From the NCBI GenBank assembly GCA_041530395.1, contig CP136945.1:2728001-2792000 (forward strand): a DNA stretch of 64,000 bases. Direction: 5' to 3'. The translations under genes and the position numbers were made by a program. Shown in pieces: positions 6,020 through 49,507 of this stretch. Numbering within the stretch: position 1 is the stretch's first letter; the number at the start of each line of letters is the position of its first letter. Below the pieces are notes generated by a model. That model was not told where the DNA came from. It did no database searches and saw only the letters and a list, made by a program, of their open reading frames with translations. This stretch comes from Thermosynechococcaceae cyanobacterium Okahandja. Its GTDB lineage: Bacteria > Cyanobacteriota > Cyanobacteriia > Thermosynechococcales > Thermosynechococcaceae.

Positions 6020-6200
6020 GTGACATCCTCCCGACGCTGACCCTGCCCCCAACCCCCGCGTGCGGGGGCTAGGGGGTACAGCACGGGCTTCCCAACCTCA
6101 CGATTGGGCATTCCTGCCCCACGCCACTTGTCTAGGTCAACGACCCCCGACAGACCGACTTGACAGGCGGTTTCCCTTCCCCAGCGTCCCTAGGCTACTA
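6020..6200 (-). ncRNA. Predicted omegaRNA (TnpB guide RNA) and right end of copy 1
   Basis: In TnpB elements the 3' part of the tnpB transcript is the guide RNA, with the guide copied from DNA just past the right tip. This GC-rich stretch overlaps the tnpB end and is conserved in copies 2 and 3. It contains a strong hairpin (CCCCCGC-AC-GCGGGGG) between two GGTTGGG repeats that copies 2 and 3 lack. The encoded guide would begin GAATCTTTAGGTTATT, reading minus strand past 6020. The 5' boundary is a guess. Confidence 0.55.
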
Positions 6201-7341
6201 CATTTTCTAATCCACGATGCAACACCCTCTCTGCCGCCGCATGGTCACGATGCGTCCGATACCCACACTCCCGACAATGATGCTCTCTGATGCCCAACTC
6301 TTTCCTTACGGTGACAAGGCACTTAGGGCAGGTTTGACTGGTGCCGTTGGGATTGACTTTCGCAAAGTACACACCTCGCTTCCAACACACCCATGCCAGC
6401 AGAGATAAAAACTGTCCAAAGGCGGCATCCACACAATCTTTTCGCAGCATCCCTCGCGTCAATCCTATGACGTTGAGGTCTTCCGCAAAGATGGTTTGTC
6501 CTTGGTCACAAAGTTTATGAGCCGTTTTCAGATGAAAATCTTTCCGACGGTTCGCTATCCGATGGTGCTGTCTAGCCACTTTCGTTTGTGCCTTCTCCCA
6601 GTTGTGAGACCCTTTTTGTTTTCTCGCCGCTCTGCGTTGCAGCAATTGCAGCTTGCGTTGCGCCGACTTGAAAAACTGAGGGCGCTCTTGGAAAGAGCCA
6701 TCCGAAAGGGTTAAGAATCGCTCCAATCCAAGGTCAATGCCAATCGCCCGACCATGAACCGGAAGGTCAGGAATCGACACGTCCGACTCGATGGTGACCA
6801 CAACGTACCATTGCGTCCCCCTGACTCTGGACAATACCCTCACCTGCTTGACCGTGAACCCGTCAGGGATAGGGCGATGCCGGTTGATGGTCACTTCCCC
6901 GATTTTGGGCAGCTTGATAACGTTGCCCTTGATAGGGTTGTCCTTGAACTGGGGGAACACAAAGGACTTGAACTGACCAACTTTTTTGAAGCGCGGAAAC
7001 CCGTGTCCACGCTTCTGAAACGCTTCCCAAGTATCGTGCAGTCTACGAATCGTAGTTTGCAACACCTGAGAATGCACCCTGCTCAAATGGGGGAATTGCT
7101 TCTTGGCCTTGGGTAGGTTGTTTTGCTGACGCTGGTAAGACGGAAACGGTTCATCGGCAGGAATGATATATTCCTTCTCCAACGAGCATCGGTCTATCGA
7201 ACACTGACGCGCAGCCATCCAGTCTTTGAGTTCGCGCAAGGCGTAGTTATACACGCCTCTGCACATCTCCAGCCATTCCAGCAGTTCAATCTGTTGGCTG
7301 GCATCTGGATAGATGCGGTAGGTGTAGTTCATGGTTAGCAT
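6190..7341 (-). CDS. tnpB: TnpB RNA-guided endonuclease, family A (intact)
   Basis: TnpB is the compact RuvC nuclease ancestral to Cas12; it uses an RNA from the element's right end to cut target DNA. The 383 residues include YTYRIYPDASQQ at the N-terminus. RuvC residues are D203 (GIDLGLE), E287 (FAEDLN) and D366 (HRDHAAA). A zinc ribbon uses C338, C341, C356 and C359. All catalytic and zinc residues are present, so activity is plausible. The TAG stop is one base different from CAG in copies 2 and 3, which read on through the right end. Confidence 0.92.
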   Translation of the reverse strand: MLTMNYTYRIYPDASQQIELLEWLEMCRGVYNYALRELKDWMAARQCSIDRCSLEKEYIIPADEPFPSYQRQQNNLPKAKKQFPHLSRVHSQVLQTTIRRLHDTWEAFQKRGHGFPRFKKVGQFKSFVFPQFKDNPIKGNVIKLPKIGEVTINRHRPIPDGFTVKQVRVLSRVRGTQWYVVVTIESDVSIPDLPVHGRAIGIDLGLERFLTLSDGSFQERPQFFKSAQRKLQLLQRRAARKQKGSHNWEKAQTKVARQHHRIANRRKDFHLKTAHKLCDQGQTIFAEDLNVIGLTRGMLRKDCVDAAFGQFLSLLAWVCWKRGVYFAKVNPNGTSQTCPKCLVTVRKELGIREHHCRECGYRTHRDHAAAERVLHRGLENVVA

Positions 7342-12222: not shown

Positions 12223-12660
12223 TCACACCTGCCAACCGAGGGGTTTGTTTAGACTATACGATCGTGACATCCTCCCGAGGCTGACCCTGCCCCCAACCTC
12301 ACGATTGGGCATTCCTGCCCCACGCCACTTGTCTAGGTCAGAGACCCCCGACAGACCGACTTGACAGGCGGTTTCCCTTCCCCAGTGTCCCTGGGCTACT
12401 ACATTTTCTAGTCCACGATGCAACACCACCTCTGCGGCAGCATGGTCACGATGCGTCCGATACCCACACTCCCGACAATGATGCTCTCTGATGCCCAACT
12501 CTTTCCTTACGGTAACAAGGCACTTAGGGCAGGTTTGACTGGTGCCGTTGGGATTGACTTTGGCAAAGGACACGCGTCTGCACGTCTCCAGCCATTCCAG
12601 CAGTTCAATCTGTTGGCTGGCATCTGGATAGATGCGGTAGGTGTAGTTCATGGTCAGCAT
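12223..12660 (-). pseudogene. tnpB remnant with in-frame internal deletion
   Basis: About 30 N-terminal codons (MNYTYRIYPDASQQIELL...LETCRRV) are joined in frame to the last ~60 TnpB codons (SFAKVNPNGTSQTCPKC onward). RuvC D203 and E287 are gone; the zinc ribbon and last Asp remain. The stop seen in copy 1 is CAG here, so the frame runs through the right end and stops 41 bases outside the element, overlapping the peptidase gene. A truncated protein could be made, but it cannot be a nuclease. Confidence 0.85.
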
Positions 12661-42968: not shown

Positions 42969-43384
42969 CCTTCCTCCTTGTGGGGAAGGCGATCGAATGG
43001 AAACATGCAATTCCTGAAGAAGCAGTCGAAAAAATCAACGCCCCTTCCTCCTTGTGGGGAAGGCGATCGAATGGAAACAACCATTGATTGTCGCAAGCAT
43101 ATTGCCTCCTTATCTTATTTCCTTCCTCCTTGTGGGGAAGGCGATCGAATGGAAACGATAAAATTGCTGGTCCCAAGTTTCCCCTGGGACCCAGTCCTTC
43201 CTCCTTGTGGGGAAGGCGATCGAATGGAAACAGCTGATAAACGTTATCGGTTACGCTATCAGCCGAGCGGAACCTTCCTCCTTGTGGGGAAGGCGATCGA
43301 ATGGAAACCAGACTTTTGTACATTTCCGCAACGCTGGCTTGGTATCGGCCTTCCTCCTTGTGGGGAAGGCGATCGAATGGAAAC
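42969..43384 (+). CRISPR. CRISPR array: six 36-bp repeats, five spacers
   Basis: Identical repeats start at 42969, 43043, 43121, 43196, 43273 and 43349. Each begins CCTTCCTCCTTGTGGGG and ends GAATGGAAAC. Spacers are 38, 42, 39, 41 and 40 bases. The length of repeat and spacer and the 3' GAAAC handle fit type III or I-D arrays of cyanobacteria. The inner CCTTCC/GGAAGG arms can pair across TTGTGG. The repeat contains GGCGATCG, close to HIP1. No cas1, cas2, cas6 or cas10 is in the window, so processing and acquisition must come from elsewhere or be lost. Confidence 0.97.
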
Positions 43385-43486: not shown

Positions 43487-43568
43487 AAGAGAACTTTAAA
43501 TTTCTTCTTTATGGGATAGGGCAGGCGATCGGGTAGCAGTGCATAGAGCGGCAAAAACACTGGGATAT

Positions 43569-44681
43569 ATGGATGTAGTCCCTTTTGTGATTGCCATGGA
43601 AAGCACATTACACCAAATCCTGAAGTATGCGAGGAAAGACTGTTATCCTTATATTGTCCTGCCTGAAGCAATTGCCAGTTATCTGCAAGGGCCAACGCTA
43701 CCTCCAAAACCGACACCTCCCAGAAAACCTCTACTACCTCCGAAGCCCGAGCCGCCACCGATACCTGAAGTTCCTGCAAAAGTCATGGATAAACTACAGG
43801 CCGCAGTGGCCAGTGGTACTGCAATTGCTGGGTTAGCTGGCTTAATTATTCTTGAGGCTCCTAGCTTGTTGATCACAGCCGGTGCCTTAGGAGTCGTCGC
43901 TTTAGCTAAATTTGCTTACGAGGCATGGACCTACGAAGATCGACTGGAATATTACTATACCGTCTCATTGCCTAGGTATGAGAGGGAGAAGCAGATCTAC
44001 GAAGAAAGACTAAAAAGTCGAGAGGTTGAGGTTGAAAGAATAAAACGGGATTACGATAAAAAGCTTGAGCAACTGAACAGAGAGTATGAAGAGAAGGTCA
44101 AACACATAAAGCAACTGTGGGAGCAAGGTGAATCTATCCCTACTCTGACTGTTCGACAGCCTGATGCAAAAGGTAATCCTTGCATTGGAGCATACGAAAA
44201 TCATTTGCGACAATGGCTGGAAGAGAAGATCAAGAATGACTCTAATCTTCATATTCAGCTACTTCCACAAGGAACAGCATTGACAATAAAGGATTATTCA
44301 TATCCTTACACGCCAGATATTGGCATCCTTGTATCAAAGAACGATCACACTCTTTTCATTGACGTGGAAATAGACGAACCTTGGTACACTCACAACAACC
44401 AACGTTTTCCGTGTCATGCACTCGAGGATGAACGGCAGACTAGGCGAGATAATTTCTTTAAGGAAGGAGGATGGATCGTAGTTCGTTTCTCTGAGGATCA
44501 AGTTGCAGATGAAGGCAATGAATGTGTTAATTTCATATACGACTTGATTCAAGTTATATTGCAACCCACTTTTATAAGCCTGCGCGATTGGCCTATGAAT
44601 TATAAGCGGTGGAATGCTTCAGAAGCTCTAACTATTCAACGGCGTATAGCTTATGCTGAAGTTCTTGATGTCGAACTATAG
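43569..44681 (+). CDS. Membrane-anchored coiled-coil protein with PD-(D/E)XK-like nuclease domain
   Basis: Unrecognised as a whole. From ATG 43569, 370 residues (a GTG at 43539 and an ATG at 43596 are alternatives; none has a good SD). Numbered from the GTG: a proline-rich stretch (52-80), a hydrophobic segment or hairpin (91-125), a charged coiled coil (145-195) and a C-terminal domain (215-345). That domain has E220 in AYENHL, D260 in YTPDIGI, E277 in IDVEIDE, then DERQTRRDNFF, GGWIVVRFSEDQV, the order expected of DUF559/Vsr-like PD-(D/E)XK folds. It is clearly AT-richer than its neighbours. Placed between a CRISPR array and a CARF-HEPN gene, it may be a defence effector (inference). Confidence 0.75.
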   Translation: MDVVPFVIAMESTLHQILKYARKDCYPYIVLPEAIASYLQGPTLPPKPTPPRKPLLPPKPEPPPIPEVPAKVMDKLQAAVASGTAIAGLAGLIILEAPSLLITAGALGVVALAKFAYEAWTYEDRLEYYYTVSLPRYEREKQIYEERLKSREVEVERIKRDYDKKLEQLNREYEEKVKHIKQLWEQGESIPTLTVRQPDAKGNPCIGAYENHLRQWLEEKIKNDSNLHIQLLPQGTALTIKDYSYPYTPDIGILVSKNDHTLFIDVEIDEPWYTHNNQRFPCHALEDERQTRRDNFFKEGGWIVVRFSEDQVADEGNECVNFIYDLIQVILQPTFISLRDWPMNYKRWNASEALTIQRRIAYAEVLDVEL

Positions 44682-44916: not shown

Positions 44917-46428
44917 ATGCAAACAGGGATGATTACCATTGGCAAGCGTCAGGTAGGCTGGCGCTGTCGGGATGGCATCGTTCGTAGTTTTGGTGCCGAT
45001 GGCGGCGCTGATCCTGCCCACGTTGATGAGTTATTCCGAGAGTTTGGCCAAGAGCGCGGTCAGCACGATGCTAAATCTCGGCATGGTGTCCGTTACCTTG
45101 GGGAGGTTGCCTACCAGTACTGCACTGCGCACCAAGACTTTTCTGCCGTCGTTTTGCTGTTGGATCAGGTGGTTTTAGACCAGTGTTTTAGCAACCCCAG
45201 TGAACCCACTGAAATTATTCTTGTGGGAACCGATCAACCCGATACCGTGGCTTGGCAGTTTCGCCGCGATGATACCTGCTGGCTGGCAGCACTGATGGCC
45301 GGTGCCATTCAGCAGCGATACCCCCACATTACCGTCAAAGTGTGGGTGTGCAATCAACCAATTAACAGTATCGAAAATCTGCGTCAATGGGTGGGGCAAC
45401 AGCTTCAGCAGTACTATGAGTATTTACTGCAAAACAATCTTTTAGAAAACTGGTCACTTCACCTTCAGATCAAGGGGTCTGTGCCGCAACTGTCCAGTGC
45501 GGTGGAATTGATGGCAGTGCTGGCAATGCGGCAGTTTCCGGTCAGCCACCTCATTCCCGAAGAACCCGTCCCCTTTTTTGCGCCAAGCACGCAATCCGCC
45601 CAGTCTGCCACCACCTTACAAAAGGTGCATTTAGGCCAAGTCTTTTGGCCGCTTGAGCAGCAGCGAATTGAAATGGCATGGCGGCAGGGTCACTTTGTGG
45701 CGGCCACATTCCTTTTAGAGTCCCATCGCAATCGCCATGAAGCACTCTACCAACTTGCTGATCGCCTCGCCATGGCGACAAACTGGCAAATCACGGAAAT
45801 GCTGAAAAAGCTACAGGGAGAACATTGGGTTTATCACAGAGCCACCAAGCGAGTTGTCTCTAGGCAACAACGTCAGCAGTGGCAGCAGGCCATTGAAAAA
45901 CGCTGTCCCCCCAATGCCGAAACGAAAGAAAGCAAGTTTCTCAAGATCTGGGAGTTAGAGTTACTGATTGAACTCAGCTTACGGCAGCAAAATTATACAT
46001 TTGCGTTTATGCAGTTCGCCCAGATGCTCGAGCGGCTGTTGTATTGGCGGTACGAGACCGAAGAATGGGCAAAGCAAGGGTATCTAGATTCAGAGCAGCA
46101 CTCGCCGCCCCAAGCTACAACGTGGCAGCCAGGCCCGGGGTTGGGTTGCCTATGGCACGCATGGCAAAGGTGTCACCACTGTTCAAACGACGATCCAAGG
46201 GTCAATAAGCTTAAACACATTAATGAGTGGAGAAATGGTGTTGTCCATAAGAATAGGTCTATTACCCGCAAGCAACTACAAGACATCGCCGCAACCTCAA
46301 GTGATACTCCAGAGGATATGCATGGGGGGTTAGTAGAGTTTCTGGAGGCGATCGTTCAGCCGCATCCTCGCCCTGACACTGGTGTGGCGCGATCGCTCTA
46401 CGAATGGGGACTCGAGCAATTACGCTGA
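44917..46428 (+). CDS. CARF-like and HEPN domain protein (Csm6/Csx1-like RNase candidate)
   Basis: 503 residues. A Rossmann-like CARF region runs from about 78 to 240: PTEIILVGTDQP (first strand-loop), ITVKVWVCNQP, then the ligand-loop-like IKGSVPQLSSAVELMAVLA. A helical middle follows. Near the C-terminus HINEWRNGVVHKN gives R439-x4-H444, the HEPN RNase motif. The layout fits type III accessory RNases switched on by cyclic oligoadenylate. The first ~75 residues (GKRQVGWRCRDGIVRSFG) are not explained. ATG 44917 has GAGGG upstream. Cas10, the maker of the signal, is not in the window. Confidence 0.72.
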   Translation: MQTGMITIGKRQVGWRCRDGIVRSFGADGGADPAHVDELFREFGQERGQHDAKSRHGVRYLGEVAYQYCTAHQDFSAVVLLLDQVVLDQCFSNPSEPTEIILVGTDQPDTVAWQFRRDDTCWLAALMAGAIQQRYPHITVKVWVCNQPINSIENLRQWVGQQLQQYYEYLLQNNLLENWSLHLQIKGSVPQLSSAVELMAVLAMRQFPVSHLIPEEPVPFFAPSTQSAQSATTLQKVHLGQVFWPLEQQRIEMAWRQGHFVAATFLLESHRNRHEALYQLADRLAMATNWQITEMLKKLQGEHWVYHRATKRVVSRQQRQQWQQAIEKRCPPNAETKESKFLKIWELELLIELSLRQQNYTFAFMQFAQMLERLLYWRYETEEWAKQGYLDSEQHSPPQATTWQPGPGLGCLWHAWQRCHHCSNDDPRVNKLKHINEWRNGVVHKNRSITRKQLQDIAATSSDTPEDMHGGLVEFLEAIVQPHPRPDTGVARSLYEWGLEQLR

Positions 46429-46467
46429 CAGCACCAGCCGTAAGATCTATCTTCTTTCTAGGGAAGG

Positions 46468-47712
46468 TTATTGAGGGGAACGTGACAAAATACTGGGGCG
46501 AATTTTATCCCCGTCCTGCAACGGCCGTCCCGATCGCACCACGTAGCGATCGCCCACGTCTAAGCCACTTAGAATTTCAACTTTGCCTTGGCGACGCTGG
46601 CCAAGCCGTACCTGCCGCTCAACGACGCGATCGCCCACCACCACAAAGACAGTGCCTTTGCGGGAGGAGAGCCGCCCTTCCTCGGCACCCGCCAAAGCGG
46701 TTTCGGAAATTAGCAGGCGGGGCGCATTGGCCGCCCTAAAGGTCACTCGCGCTAGCAGGCCACTGCCAAGGCGCTCGTCGCTATTATCAATTAGAATTTC
46801 AACAGGGATCAGCCGCGCATCTGCCGCTGCGGGCGAAATACGGCTAATCCGCCCCTTGTAGGTGCGATTGGGAACTGCATCAAACGTCAATGTGGCCTCT
46901 TGACCGGGGGCAAGTCGTCCTAGTTCTCGTTCCGACACCTCGACGATGACCCGCAACTGCTGTAAATCTCCTAAACGGAGTGCCTCACCCCCGGGTTGCA
47001 ACAGGTTCCCCACTTCCGTCAGGCGCTCGAGGACGATGCCATTCAGGGGCGATCGCATGAGGGCATAGCTAAGCCGCGCCCGCGCCTGTTGAACAAAGGC
47101 TGTCTGCGCTTGGACGCGCCCTTGAGCAACCGCCACCCCTTGCTGCGCCGTGATCACTTCCGCTTGGCGCGATCGCAACACTTGCCGCGCCGTCTGTGCC
47201 GCTGTACGAGCTTGCTCTGCCGCCTGAGCAGACACGGCACCATCCTGAAGCAAGGTTTCGAGGCGTTGGGCATCGCTTTCTGCCTGCTGCAACAGTAACC
47301 GCGCCTCTTCTACAGCAGTACGGGCACGATTCACCGCCGCCTGTGCCTGAATGACCTCATTGCGACGTGCCGCCAACTCCGCTTCTGCCTCAAAGACGGC
47401 GGTTTTCAGCACAATGGGATCAACTTCCGCCAAAACCTGTCCAGCGCGGACGCGATCGCCCACATCGACCCCTAAGCGCACCACTTGCCCTTCCACTTGC
47501 GATCGCACCATGACATCGCGATAGGGGCGGGTCGTTCCCGTGAAGGTTGTTTCTCCGTCTAATTGCCCGAGGGCGGCAACGGCAATATCTACCGCCACAC
47601 CATTTTCTTCAGGCCGTGCGACAGCGGGCGGATCTAAGCGGTTCATTGCTGACTGGCAGCCCCCCAAGAGCACGCCGATGGCGATCGCCCCCATTAGCCC
47701 TTTGCCAATCAT
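46468..47712 (-). CDS. RND efflux periplasmic adaptor (HlyD/MFP family) lipoprotein
   Basis: 414 residues. Lipobox VLLGGCQS, a biotinyl-lipoyl half-motif (VRSQVEGQVVRLGVDVGDRV), a long alpha-helical hairpin rich in Ala/Glu/Gln (TAVFEAEAELAARRNEVIQ onward), the second lipoyl half (LMRSPLNGIVLERLTEVGNL) and beta-barrel/MP domains. It would link an inner-membrane RND pump to an outer-membrane channel. The pump gene is not adjacent: the left neighbour is the CARF gene and the right is a TnpB element. Confidence 0.9.
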   Translation of the reverse strand: MIGKGLMGAIAIGVLLGGCQSAMNRLDPPAVARPEENGVAVDIAVAALGQLDGETTFTGTTRPYRDVMVRSQVEGQVVRLGVDVGDRVRAGQVLAEVDPIVLKTAVFEAEAELAARRNEVIQAQAAVNRARTAVEEARLLLQQAESDAQRLETLLQDGAVSAQAAEQARTAAQTARQVLRSRQAEVITAQQGVAVAQGRVQAQTAFVQQARARLSYALMRSPLNGIVLERLTEVGNLLQPGGEALRLGDLQQLRVIVEVSERELGRLAPGQEATLTFDAVPNRTYKGRISRISPAAADARLIPVEILIDNSDERLGSGLLARVTFRAANAPRLLISETALAGAEEGRLSSRKGTVFVVVGDRVVERQVRLGQRRQGKVEILSGLDVGDRYVVRSGRPLQDGDKIRPSILSRSPQ

Positions 47713-47767: not shown

Positions 47768-48815
47768 TAATGAGGGGTTCGGGGACCGATAAGTCCCGCG
47801 CTAGTCGGGATACATGGACGCCCCGCGCTTCTCGATTCCCCACGATGGGGATGAGACAAGCATTTACCAGTAGGCATGGTTTGCGGTCAACTGTCGCTAT
47901 GCTGACCATGAACTACTGTGTTTCCTCAGTTCAAGGACAACCCTATCAAGGGCAATGTTATCAAGCTGCCCAAGATCGGGGAAGTGCGTATCAACCTGCA
48001 TCGACCCATCCCTGACGGGTTCAAGGTGAAGCAGGTGAGGGTCGTGTCCAGAGTACGGGGGACGCAATGGTACGTTGTGGTCACCATCGAGTCGGACGTG
48101 TCGATTCCTGACCCTCCAGTTCATGGTCGGGCCATTGGCATTGACCTTGGATTGGAGCGATTCTTCACCCTTTCGGATGGCAGTTTCTACAAGCGACCCA
48201 AGTTGTTCAAGTCGGAGCAAGGCAAGCTGAAATTGCTGCAACGCAGAGCGGCGAGAAAACAAAAAGGGTCTCGAAACTGGGAAAAGGCTCAAACGAAAGT
48301 GGCTAAACAGCACCATCGGATAGCGAACCGTCGGCAAGACTTTCATCTGAAGACGGCACATCAACTGTGTGACCACGCTCAAACCATCTTTGCCGAAGAC
48401 CTGAGCACCGAAGGGTTAACGCGGGGGATGCTGCGAAAGGAATGTGTGGATGCCGCTTTTGGACAGTTTTTATCTCTGCTGGCATGGGTGTGCTGGAAAC
48501 GTGGGGTGTACTTTGCGAAAGTCAACCCCAACGGCACCAGTCAAACCTGCCCTAAGTGCCTTGTTACCGTAAGGAAAGAGTTGGGCATCAGAGAGCATGA
48601 TTGTCCGGAGTGTGGGTATCGGACGCATCGTGACCATGCGGCGGCAGAGAGGGTGTTGCATCGTGGATTAGAGAACGTAGTAGCCCAGGGACGCTGGGGA
48701 AGGGAAACCGCCTGTCAAGTCGGTCTGTCGGGGGTCTCTGACCTAGACAAGTGGCGTGGGGCAGGAATGCCCAATCGTGAGGTTGGGGGCAGGGTCAGCG
48801 TCGGGAGGATGTCAC
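47768..48815 (+). mobile_element. Family A TnpB element, copy 3 (1048 bp, 5'-deleted tnpB)
   Basis: TTAAC (47763-47767) then TAATGAGGGGTTCGGGG at the left, GGGAGGATGTCAC ending at 48815 at the right. The first three bases of the left tip differ from other copies (TAAT against TTTT). Like copy 2 it lacks the GGTTGGG-flanked hairpin near the right end. It lies 38 bases before hisH. Confidence 0.88.
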
Positions 48816-48853
48816 AGAGAGATACAATACGAGGGGCGCTCAGGAGACCCGCC
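47899..48853 (+). pseudogene. tnpB with frameshifting N-terminal deletion, open into hisH
   Basis: ATG CTG ACC ATG AAC TAC at 47899 is the tnpB start, but about 121 codons are missing and the junction shifts the frame. The remaining frame is open from GTG 47918, equal to V128 of copy 1. It keeps the RuvC motifs GIDLGLE, FAEDLS and HRDHAAA and the zinc ribbon, but lacks the N-terminal recognition region. The copy 1 stop is CAG here, so translation can continue through the right end and in frame into hisH. Confidence 0.85.
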
Positions 48854-49507
48854 GTGACTGCTCCAACAATTGCTATCCTTGACTACGACATGGGGAACCT
48901 CCATTCGGTGGCTAAAGCCCTTGATTTGGTGGGAGCTACACCCATCGTCAGCGATCGCCCCGCCGAAATACGGAGAGCCAATGCGGTTGTTTTACCCGGT
49001 GTCGGTGCCTTTGACCCAGCCATGGCGCACCTGCAGGAGCGGGAGCTCATACCGGTGATCCATGACGTGATTCGTAAGGGGGTGCCGTTCTTGGGCATTT
49101 GCTTGGGGCTGCAAGTGCTATTTGAGGCCAGTGCAGAGGGGACAGCCGCTGGCTTGGGGGTTTTTCCGGGCAGGGTAAGGCGCTTTCCTTCTACCCCCAA
49201 CCTCACCATTCCCCACATGGGCTGGAATCAACTCCTCCTTACCTCAAAAGAACTGCCGCTTTGGCAGGGCTTACCAGCGCAACCTTGGGTGTACTTTGTC
49301 CACTCTTATTTTGTTGAACCGGCTGAGCCACACTTGGTGGCCGCTAACGTGCAGCACGGTAACTATACGGTTACGGCGGCCATTGCCCACCAGAACGTCT
49401 TTGCCTGCCAGTTTCACCCCGAAAAATCCGGCACGACCGGCCTAAAAATACTCGCAAATTTTGTCGGCGTTGTGCGGCAGTCTGCCTGCGGGGCGATCGC
49501 CCCCTAG
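48854..49507 (+). CDS. hisH: Imidazole glycerol phosphate synthase, glutamine amidotransferase subunit
   Basis: Class I glutaminase that feeds ammonia to HisF in histidine synthesis. 217 residues: IAILDYDMGNLHSVAKAL, the nucleophile in FLGICLGLQVLFEAS, and the His-Glu pair in QFHPEKSG. GTG 48854 is chosen for the family start and AGGAG at 48842-48846; the frame continues upstream into the tnpB remnant. A TACAAT at 48823-48828 may be a new -10 box. The original promoter region was displaced by the element. Confidence 0.94.
   Translation: MTAPTIAILDYDMGNLHSVAKALDLVGATPIVSDRPAEIRRANAVVLPGVGAFDPAMAHLQERELIPVIHDVIRKGVPFLGICLGLQVLFEASAEGTAAGLGVFPGRVRRFPSTPNLTIPHMGWNQLLLTSKELPLWQGLPAQPWVYFVHSYFVEPAEPHLVAANVQHGNYTVTAAIAHQNVFACQFHPEKSGTTGLKILANFVGVVRQSACGAIAP

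What the first reader, a model, noticed from the sequence alone, without database searches (positions are those of the whole stretch)
44917..46428. CARF-HEPN-like RNase candidate with an unexplained N-terminal extension
HEPN motif R439-x4-H444 in HINEWRNGVVHKN and CARF-like strands around IILVGTDQP and IKGSVPQLSS. About 75 residues precede the CARF region, unlike standard Csm6/Csx1 in which CARF starts the protein. The extension may be an added sensor or partner-binding domain.
Basis: partly seen in the sequence, partly recalled or inferred. Interest (0 to 1): 0.62.

Follow-up and report, generated by a model that had tools for sequence, protein, structure and literature searches.

The report
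Ordinary CRISPR-linked CARF-HEPN RNase gene
This cyanobacterial gene encodes an already catalogued kind of RNA-cutting CRISPR alarm protein, switched on by a small cyclic messenger; the supposed extra front domain is the normal start of its messenger-sensing domain, so it is a new member of a known kind.

Summary
The ORF at 44917-46428 (503 aa) is real and is a CARF-HEPN protein. It matches the PADLOC family CARF1--CARF_HEPN over its whole length (473 bits, residues 1-502). The R439-N-x3-H444 motif holds in 30/30 (R) and 29/30 (H) homologues that reach it. The confident AlphaFold2 model aligns end to end with Csm6 structures.

The "75-residue N-terminal extension" is wrong as described. Residues 2-7 are CARF strand 1 and residues 5-15 carry a conserved motif (ITxGxRQxGW). 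CARF domains of solved structures align from model residue 1. What remains unusual is a roughly 40-residue, family-wide insertion (about 17-57) after strand 1.

Homologues were found only in cyanobacteria, and 38 of 45 sit with type III-B Cmr genes. Here the gene lies beside a six-repeat CRISPR array, far from the genome's single Cas10 locus. In its genus an intact effector occurs in exactly the 4 genomes with Cas10, and only fragments or nothing in the 7 without. It is probably a cyclic-oligoadenylate-activated RNase serving that unlinked III-B system. New member of a known kind; low interest.

The parts
44917..46428 (+). CARF-HEPN effector gene, 503 aa (PADLOC CARF1--CARF_HEPN)
   Evidence: ORF; PDLC01805 473 bits over residues 1-502; model pLDDT 90.4
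44917..45636 (+). CARF domain, residues about 1-240 (strands 2-7, 98-105, 139-145, 180-184, 209-214, 234-238)
   Evidence: secondary structure; CARF domains of Can2, Card1, Cami1 and ring nucleases align to model 1-240
44929..44961 (+). CARF motif I, residues 5-15 MITIGKRQVGW (consensus IITVGTRQVGW)
   Evidence: G9, Q12, G14, W15 in 33/33 sequences
44965..45087 (+). family-specific insertion, residues about 17-57, between CARF strand 1 and helix 1 (small hairpin, short helix, loop; the real content of the 'extension')
   Evidence: pLDDT 72-78 in most of it; 36-51 residues long in homologues and with 11 positions conserved at 90% or more
45469..45498 (+). CARF motif II, residues 185-194 IKGSVPQLSS
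   Evidence: K186 30/33, G187 32/33, P190 32/33
45637..45924 (+). all-helical linker, residues 241-336
45925..46425 (+). HEPN domain, residues 337-503
   Evidence: HEPN structures 2hsb and 6m6u align to 334-486 and 339-483 (Z about 10)
46231..46248 (+). HEPN catalytic motif R439-N-x3-H444 (RNGVVH)
   Evidence: R 30/30, N 30/30, H 29/30
42969..43384 (+). CRISPR array, six 36-nt repeats, five spacers of 38-42 nt; one mismatch in 35 from the array beside the Cas10 operon

Best explanation
The gene encodes a CARF-HEPN ancillary effector of a type III-B CRISPR system. When the Cas10/Cmr complex, guided by crRNAs, meets foreign RNA, the GGDD cyclase of Cas10 makes cyclic oligoadenylate. This binds at the CARF dimer interface formed by motif I (residues 5-15) and motif II (185-194), which activates the composite HEPN RNase site (R439/N440/H444 of two subunits) for unspecific RNA cleavage and growth arrest. 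The effector acts in trans: its gene has left the cmr operon in this genus and here lies beside a small array of the same repeat type. The messenger is probably cA4, because the genome's own III-B locus carries a CARF-RelE (Cami1-like) effector, Cami1 proteins are cA4-activated, and effectors with different messengers rarely share a locus. Shown: fold (predicted), motif conservation, operon association in relatives, presence of one Cas10 with GGDD, co-retention with Cas10 in the genus. Inferred: dimerisation, ligand binding, ligand identity, RNase activity.
For: Full-length match to PADLOC CARF1--CARF_HEPN (473 bits) and to Csx1/Csm6 (84 bits). Model pLDDT 90.4, pTM 0.77. Best solved matches are Csm6 proteins across residues 1-503: Foldseek E 3e-9 to E. 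italicus Csm6; Z 15.7 to S. thermophilus Csm6', 323 residues aligned, rmsd 5.4. HEPN R/N/H and CARF motif residues nearly invariant. 45 relatives found, all in cyanobacterial records; 38 of 45 have Cas10/Cmr genes in the fetched stretch, typically directly after cmr6, confirmed by RefSeq annotation of two plasmids. Own genome has one Cas10b with GGDD and CARF7-RelE (weak sequence match to Cami1 8phb). Cami1 is cA4-activated (PMC11229360) and different messengers rarely share a locus (PMC11229360). In 11 genus genomes intact effector matches Cas10 4/4 against 0/7 (Fisher p 0.003).
Against: No biochemistry. The gene is unlinked from Cas10 in this genome. Motif I has Lys10 where nearly all relatives have Thr, so ligand affinity could differ. 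A similar cyanobacterial Csm6-like protein, SyCsm6, showed no RNase activity and acted as a ring nuclease (PMC9676260). One homologue (L106) has Tyr instead of His. The genus association rests on few independent losses: the gene tree needs about three changes of state, and the shuffle test gave no clustering signal. The nearest folds include cA6-type Csm6, so cA4 is only a weak preference.
Confidence: 0.88

Rival explanations
1. It is mainly a ring nuclease: the CARF domain binds and cuts cyclic oligoadenylate and the HEPN RNase is weak or silent, so the protein damps the signal instead of executing it.
For: SyCsm6 of Synechocystis, a Csm6-like CARF-HEPN protein, degrades cOA and showed no RNase activity in vitro (PMC9676260). 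CARF ring nucleases align with residues 1-240.
Against: HEPN R, N and H are kept in nearly all homologues, which argues for a working RNase. In the operons examined it is often the only CARF gene recognised by the queries used, though those queries would miss other CARF types.
Confidence: 0.08
2. The N-terminal 75 residues are an added sensor or partner-binding domain in front of the CARF domain.
For: A roughly 40-residue insertion (about 17-57) is real and conserved across the family.
Against: Residues 2-7 form the first strand of the Rossmann sheet, motif I is at 5-15, and solved CARF domains align from model residue 1. The family model already begins at residue 1.
Confidence: 0.03
3. The gene is a decaying orphan no longer used: it has moved away from cas genes and a broken copy exists elsewhere in the genome.
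For: Unlinked from Cas10; truncated second copy at G000:C1 about 1,415,600 (97% and 85% identical pieces); broken copies in 6 of 11 genus genomes.
Against: The frame is intact over 503 codons with all motifs. In the genus, broken copies are found only in genomes without Cas10 (apart from the truncated extra copy here), and every genome with Cas10 keeps an intact one.
Confidence: 0.05

Closest known systems
PADLOC CARF1--CARF_HEPN, PDLC01805 (RefSeq calls members on two plasmids 'hypothetical protein')
   Same: full-length match from model position 1, same CARF-helical linker-HEPN layout, III-B operon association in relatives
   Different: this copy is outside the cmr operon; motif I Thr is Lys
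Csm6 (E. italicus 6tug, S. thermophilus Csm6' 8pcw, T. thermophilus 5fsh)
   Same: whole-chain fold match, CARF then helical linker then HEPN with R-x4-H
   Different: about 11-15% identity; no significant sequence match in the PDB (best profile hit E 0.085 to 8pcw); insertion after strand 1; III-B instead of III-A context; NCBIfam cas_csm6 only 11.5 bits against a cut-off of 150
Csx1 (cA4-activated CARF-HEPN)
   Same: domain architecture; PADLOC Csx1/Csm6 84 bits and Csx1 35 bits; type III-B setting
   Different: weaker profile and fold matches than to Csm6; ligand not tested
SyCsm6 of Synechocystis PCC 6803
   Same: cyanobacterial CARF-HEPN protein of a type III system
   Different: belongs to a III-D locus and acts as a ring nuclease (PMC9676260); its sequence was not compared here

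Membership tests
CARF-HEPN ancillary effectors, PADLOC CARF1--CARF_HEPN | full-length profile match | tested here: met
   473 bits, E 2.6e-142, profile 1-480 of 482
CARF-HEPN ancillary effectors, PADLOC CARF1--CARF_HEPN | N-terminal Rossmann-like CARF domain with conserved motif I and motif II | tested here: met
CARF-HEPN ancillary effectors, PADLOC CARF1--CARF_HEPN | C-terminal HEPN domain with conserved R-x4-6-H | tested here: met
   R 30/30, H 29/30; HEPN folds align to 334-486
CARF-HEPN ancillary effectors, PADLOC CARF1--CARF_HEPN | association with type III CRISPR loci having an active-looking Cas10 cyclase | tested here: met
   38/45 relatives with Cas10/Cmr genes in the fetched stretch; own genome Cas10 with GGDD but unlinked; presence tracks Cas10 in genus
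CARF-HEPN ancillary effectors, PADLOC CARF1--CARF_HEPN | cOA-activated RNase activity | not testable with these tools
   needs purified protein
Csm6, type III-A (NCBIfam TIGR02672 cas_csm6) | curated profile score at or above 150 bits | tested here: not met
   11.5 bits over residues 429-463 only
Csm6, type III-A (NCBIfam TIGR02672 cas_csm6) | Csm6 fold over the whole chain | tested here: met
Csm6 in the sense of PMC11229360 | activated by cA6 | not testable with these tools
   ligand not determined
Csx1 in the sense of PMC11229360 | activated by cA4 | not testable with these tools
   only indirect support: the CARF-RelE (Cami1-like) partner gene at the Cas10 locus

The most novel reading that the evidence does not exclude
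The conserved roughly 40-residue insertion between CARF strand 1 and helix 1, with its own invariant residues next to motif I, forms a lid or contact that gives this cyanobacterial clade a distinct messenger preference or couples it to the Cmr complex; and in this genus the effector is maintained as a truly trans-acting, unlinked arm of III-B immunity.
Probability: 0.12. Interest if true: 0.35.

Novelty: new member of a known kind. Interest (0 to 1): 0.17.

Why it matters
The gene itself is ordinary. Its modest value is that a cyanobacterial CARF-HEPN clade found mainly with III-B operons, annotated 'hypothetical protein' in the two RefSeq plasmid records examined, appears to have no solved relative by sequence. 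Its genus also offers a small natural experiment: effectors unlinked from Cas10 stay intact only where Cas10 survives, and decay in place where it is lost, which supports working in trans through a diffusible messenger.

Tried and rejected
Extra N-terminal domain: rejected by the model and the alignment. Neighbour 43539-44681 (DUF559-like nuclease domain with proline-rich and hydrophobic parts) as a conserved partner: no similar gene lies near any of the homologues. Structured RNA near the gene: no Rfam match. Promoter and terminator patterns no more frequent than in shuffles. Array against phage records: no match. Direct sequence match of the single protein to solved structures: none. Effector at the locus conserved in the genus (next to the rbgA-like and chlI-like genes): absent there in this genome. 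The other genus members were placed by a single short gene tree, so independent losses cannot be counted firmly. Pfam RabGGT_insert (17.6 bits, cut-off 24) treated as chance.

Full report
Observation. The ORF 44917-46428 (+) encodes 503 aa starting at ATG, with in-frame stops shortly upstream, so no longer N-terminus is hidden. Pfam and NCBIfam give nothing above their cut-offs (HEPN_RiboL-PSP 12.6 bits against 28.4; cas_csm6 11.5 against 150). PADLOC's CARF1--CARF_HEPN matches with 473 bits over residues 1-502 and profile positions 1-480 of 482. The known family model thus already includes the N-terminus.

Conservation. A scan of 84,980 species genomes gave 45 related loci, all in cyanobacterial records. 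In an alignment of 32 of them with the window protein first, G9, Q12, G14 and W15 are invariant, as part of IITVGTRQVGW at residues 5-15. R439 and N440 are kept in 30 of 30 sequences that reach that point and H444 in 29 of 30. The window protein has Lys10 and its genus relative L015 has Asn where nearly all others have Thr.

Fold. AlphaFold2 with that alignment gave mean pLDDT 90.4 and pTM 0.77. Strand 1 of the Rossmann sheet is residues 2-7, followed by a small hairpin, a short helix and a loop (about 17-57, pLDDT mostly 72-78), then helix 58-72 and the strands at 98-105, 139-145, 180-184, 209-214 and 234-238. Solved CARF domains (Can2, Card1, Cami1, ring nucleases) align from model residue 1 or 2 to about 240, and HEPN domains to about 334-486. 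Over the full length the best matches are Csm6 proteins (Foldseek E 3e-9 to 6tug; Z 15.7 to 8pcw with 323 residues aligned). So the 75 residues are CARF strand 1 with its motif, an insertion, and helix 1. The insertion is 36-51 residues in all homologues counted and has 11 positions conserved at 90% or more: a family trait of unknown role, not an extra domain of this protein.

Context. In 38 of 45 loci Cas10/Cmr genes lie in the fetched stretch; in 23 of the 37 with a cmr6 upstream the effector starts within 120 bases of it. Two plasmid records show the same order with RefSeq names, the effector being called hypothetical protein. In the window's genome (2.82 Mb, one contig) there is one Cas10, a type III-B Cas10b of 1022 aa with GGDD, at 1.588-1.591 Mb, with Cmr genes, Cas1, a CARF7-RelE gene and a 25-repeat array close by. 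The effector lies at 2.773 Mb beside a six-repeat array whose repeat differs from that array's at one position of 35. It is therefore unlinked from the cas genes but shares the repeat type.

Genus pattern. Genus g1 includes uncultured Thermosynechococcus: contig length 138604 is shared by G392:C20 and record NZ_CALJEM010000020.1. Of 11 genomes, 4 have Cas10 and exactly these have a full-length effector; the other 7 have fragments (6) or nothing (1). In the three other Cas10-bearing genomes the effector sits at one conserved place between an rbgA-like and a chlI-like gene, also far from Cas10, and the remnants in the others lie at that same place. In the window's genome that place is empty, and a truncated second copy exists at about 1.4156 Mb. 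Fisher p is 0.003 without correction for kinship; a short gene tree needs about three changes of state and its shuffle test shows no clustering of the label, so there may be two or three independent losses. Across 386 cyanobacterial genomes, 14 of 15 with a full-length effector have a Cas10 match against 147 of 371 others, by my reading of the two tables.

Mechanism. By established knowledge of the family, Cas10 makes cyclic oligoadenylate on target RNA recognition, the CARF dimer binds it and the HEPN dimer cuts RNA. All parts needed are present in this genome. The CARF-RelE gene near Cas10 resembles Cami1, which is cA4-activated; PMC11229360 reports that effectors with different messengers very rarely share a locus. 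This favours cA4, weakly, since the effector is unlinked here. None of the activity is shown by my data.

Verdict. It is a new member of a known kind.

Noticed in passing
43539-44681: ORF of 380 aa between the array and the effector gene with a DUF559 (nuclease-like) match at its C-terminal part (21.2 bits, cut-off 20.6), a proline-rich stretch and a hydrophobic stretch; no relative near other homologues of the effector.
   Followed up: partly
43500-43535 and 46447-46480: The two best partial matches in the window, outside the array, to the repeat variant CCTTCCTCTTTATGGGGAAGGCGATCGAATGGAAAC flank the DUF559 gene and the effector; they may be decayed repeats, but similar scores occur elsewhere by chance.
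   Followed up: partly
L065 5573-5984 (G000:C1 about 1,415,600): Truncated second copy of the effector gene in the same genome, two joined pieces 97% and 85% identical to the window gene, next to genes that in relatives lie near the Cas10 operon.
   Followed up: partly
L064 6037-6906; also L132, L133, L134: A DnaJ-domain gene directly follows cmr6 in the III-B operon of this genome, and related DnaJ-like genes stand in the same place in three relatives of the genus.
   Followed up: partly
47918-49507: A TnpB-like sequence runs in one open frame into a HisH-like (imidazole glycerol phosphate synthase glutaminase) sequence, giving a 529-aa ORF; related repeats lie at 6091-6961 and 12264-12573 (names by eye).
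   Followed up: no
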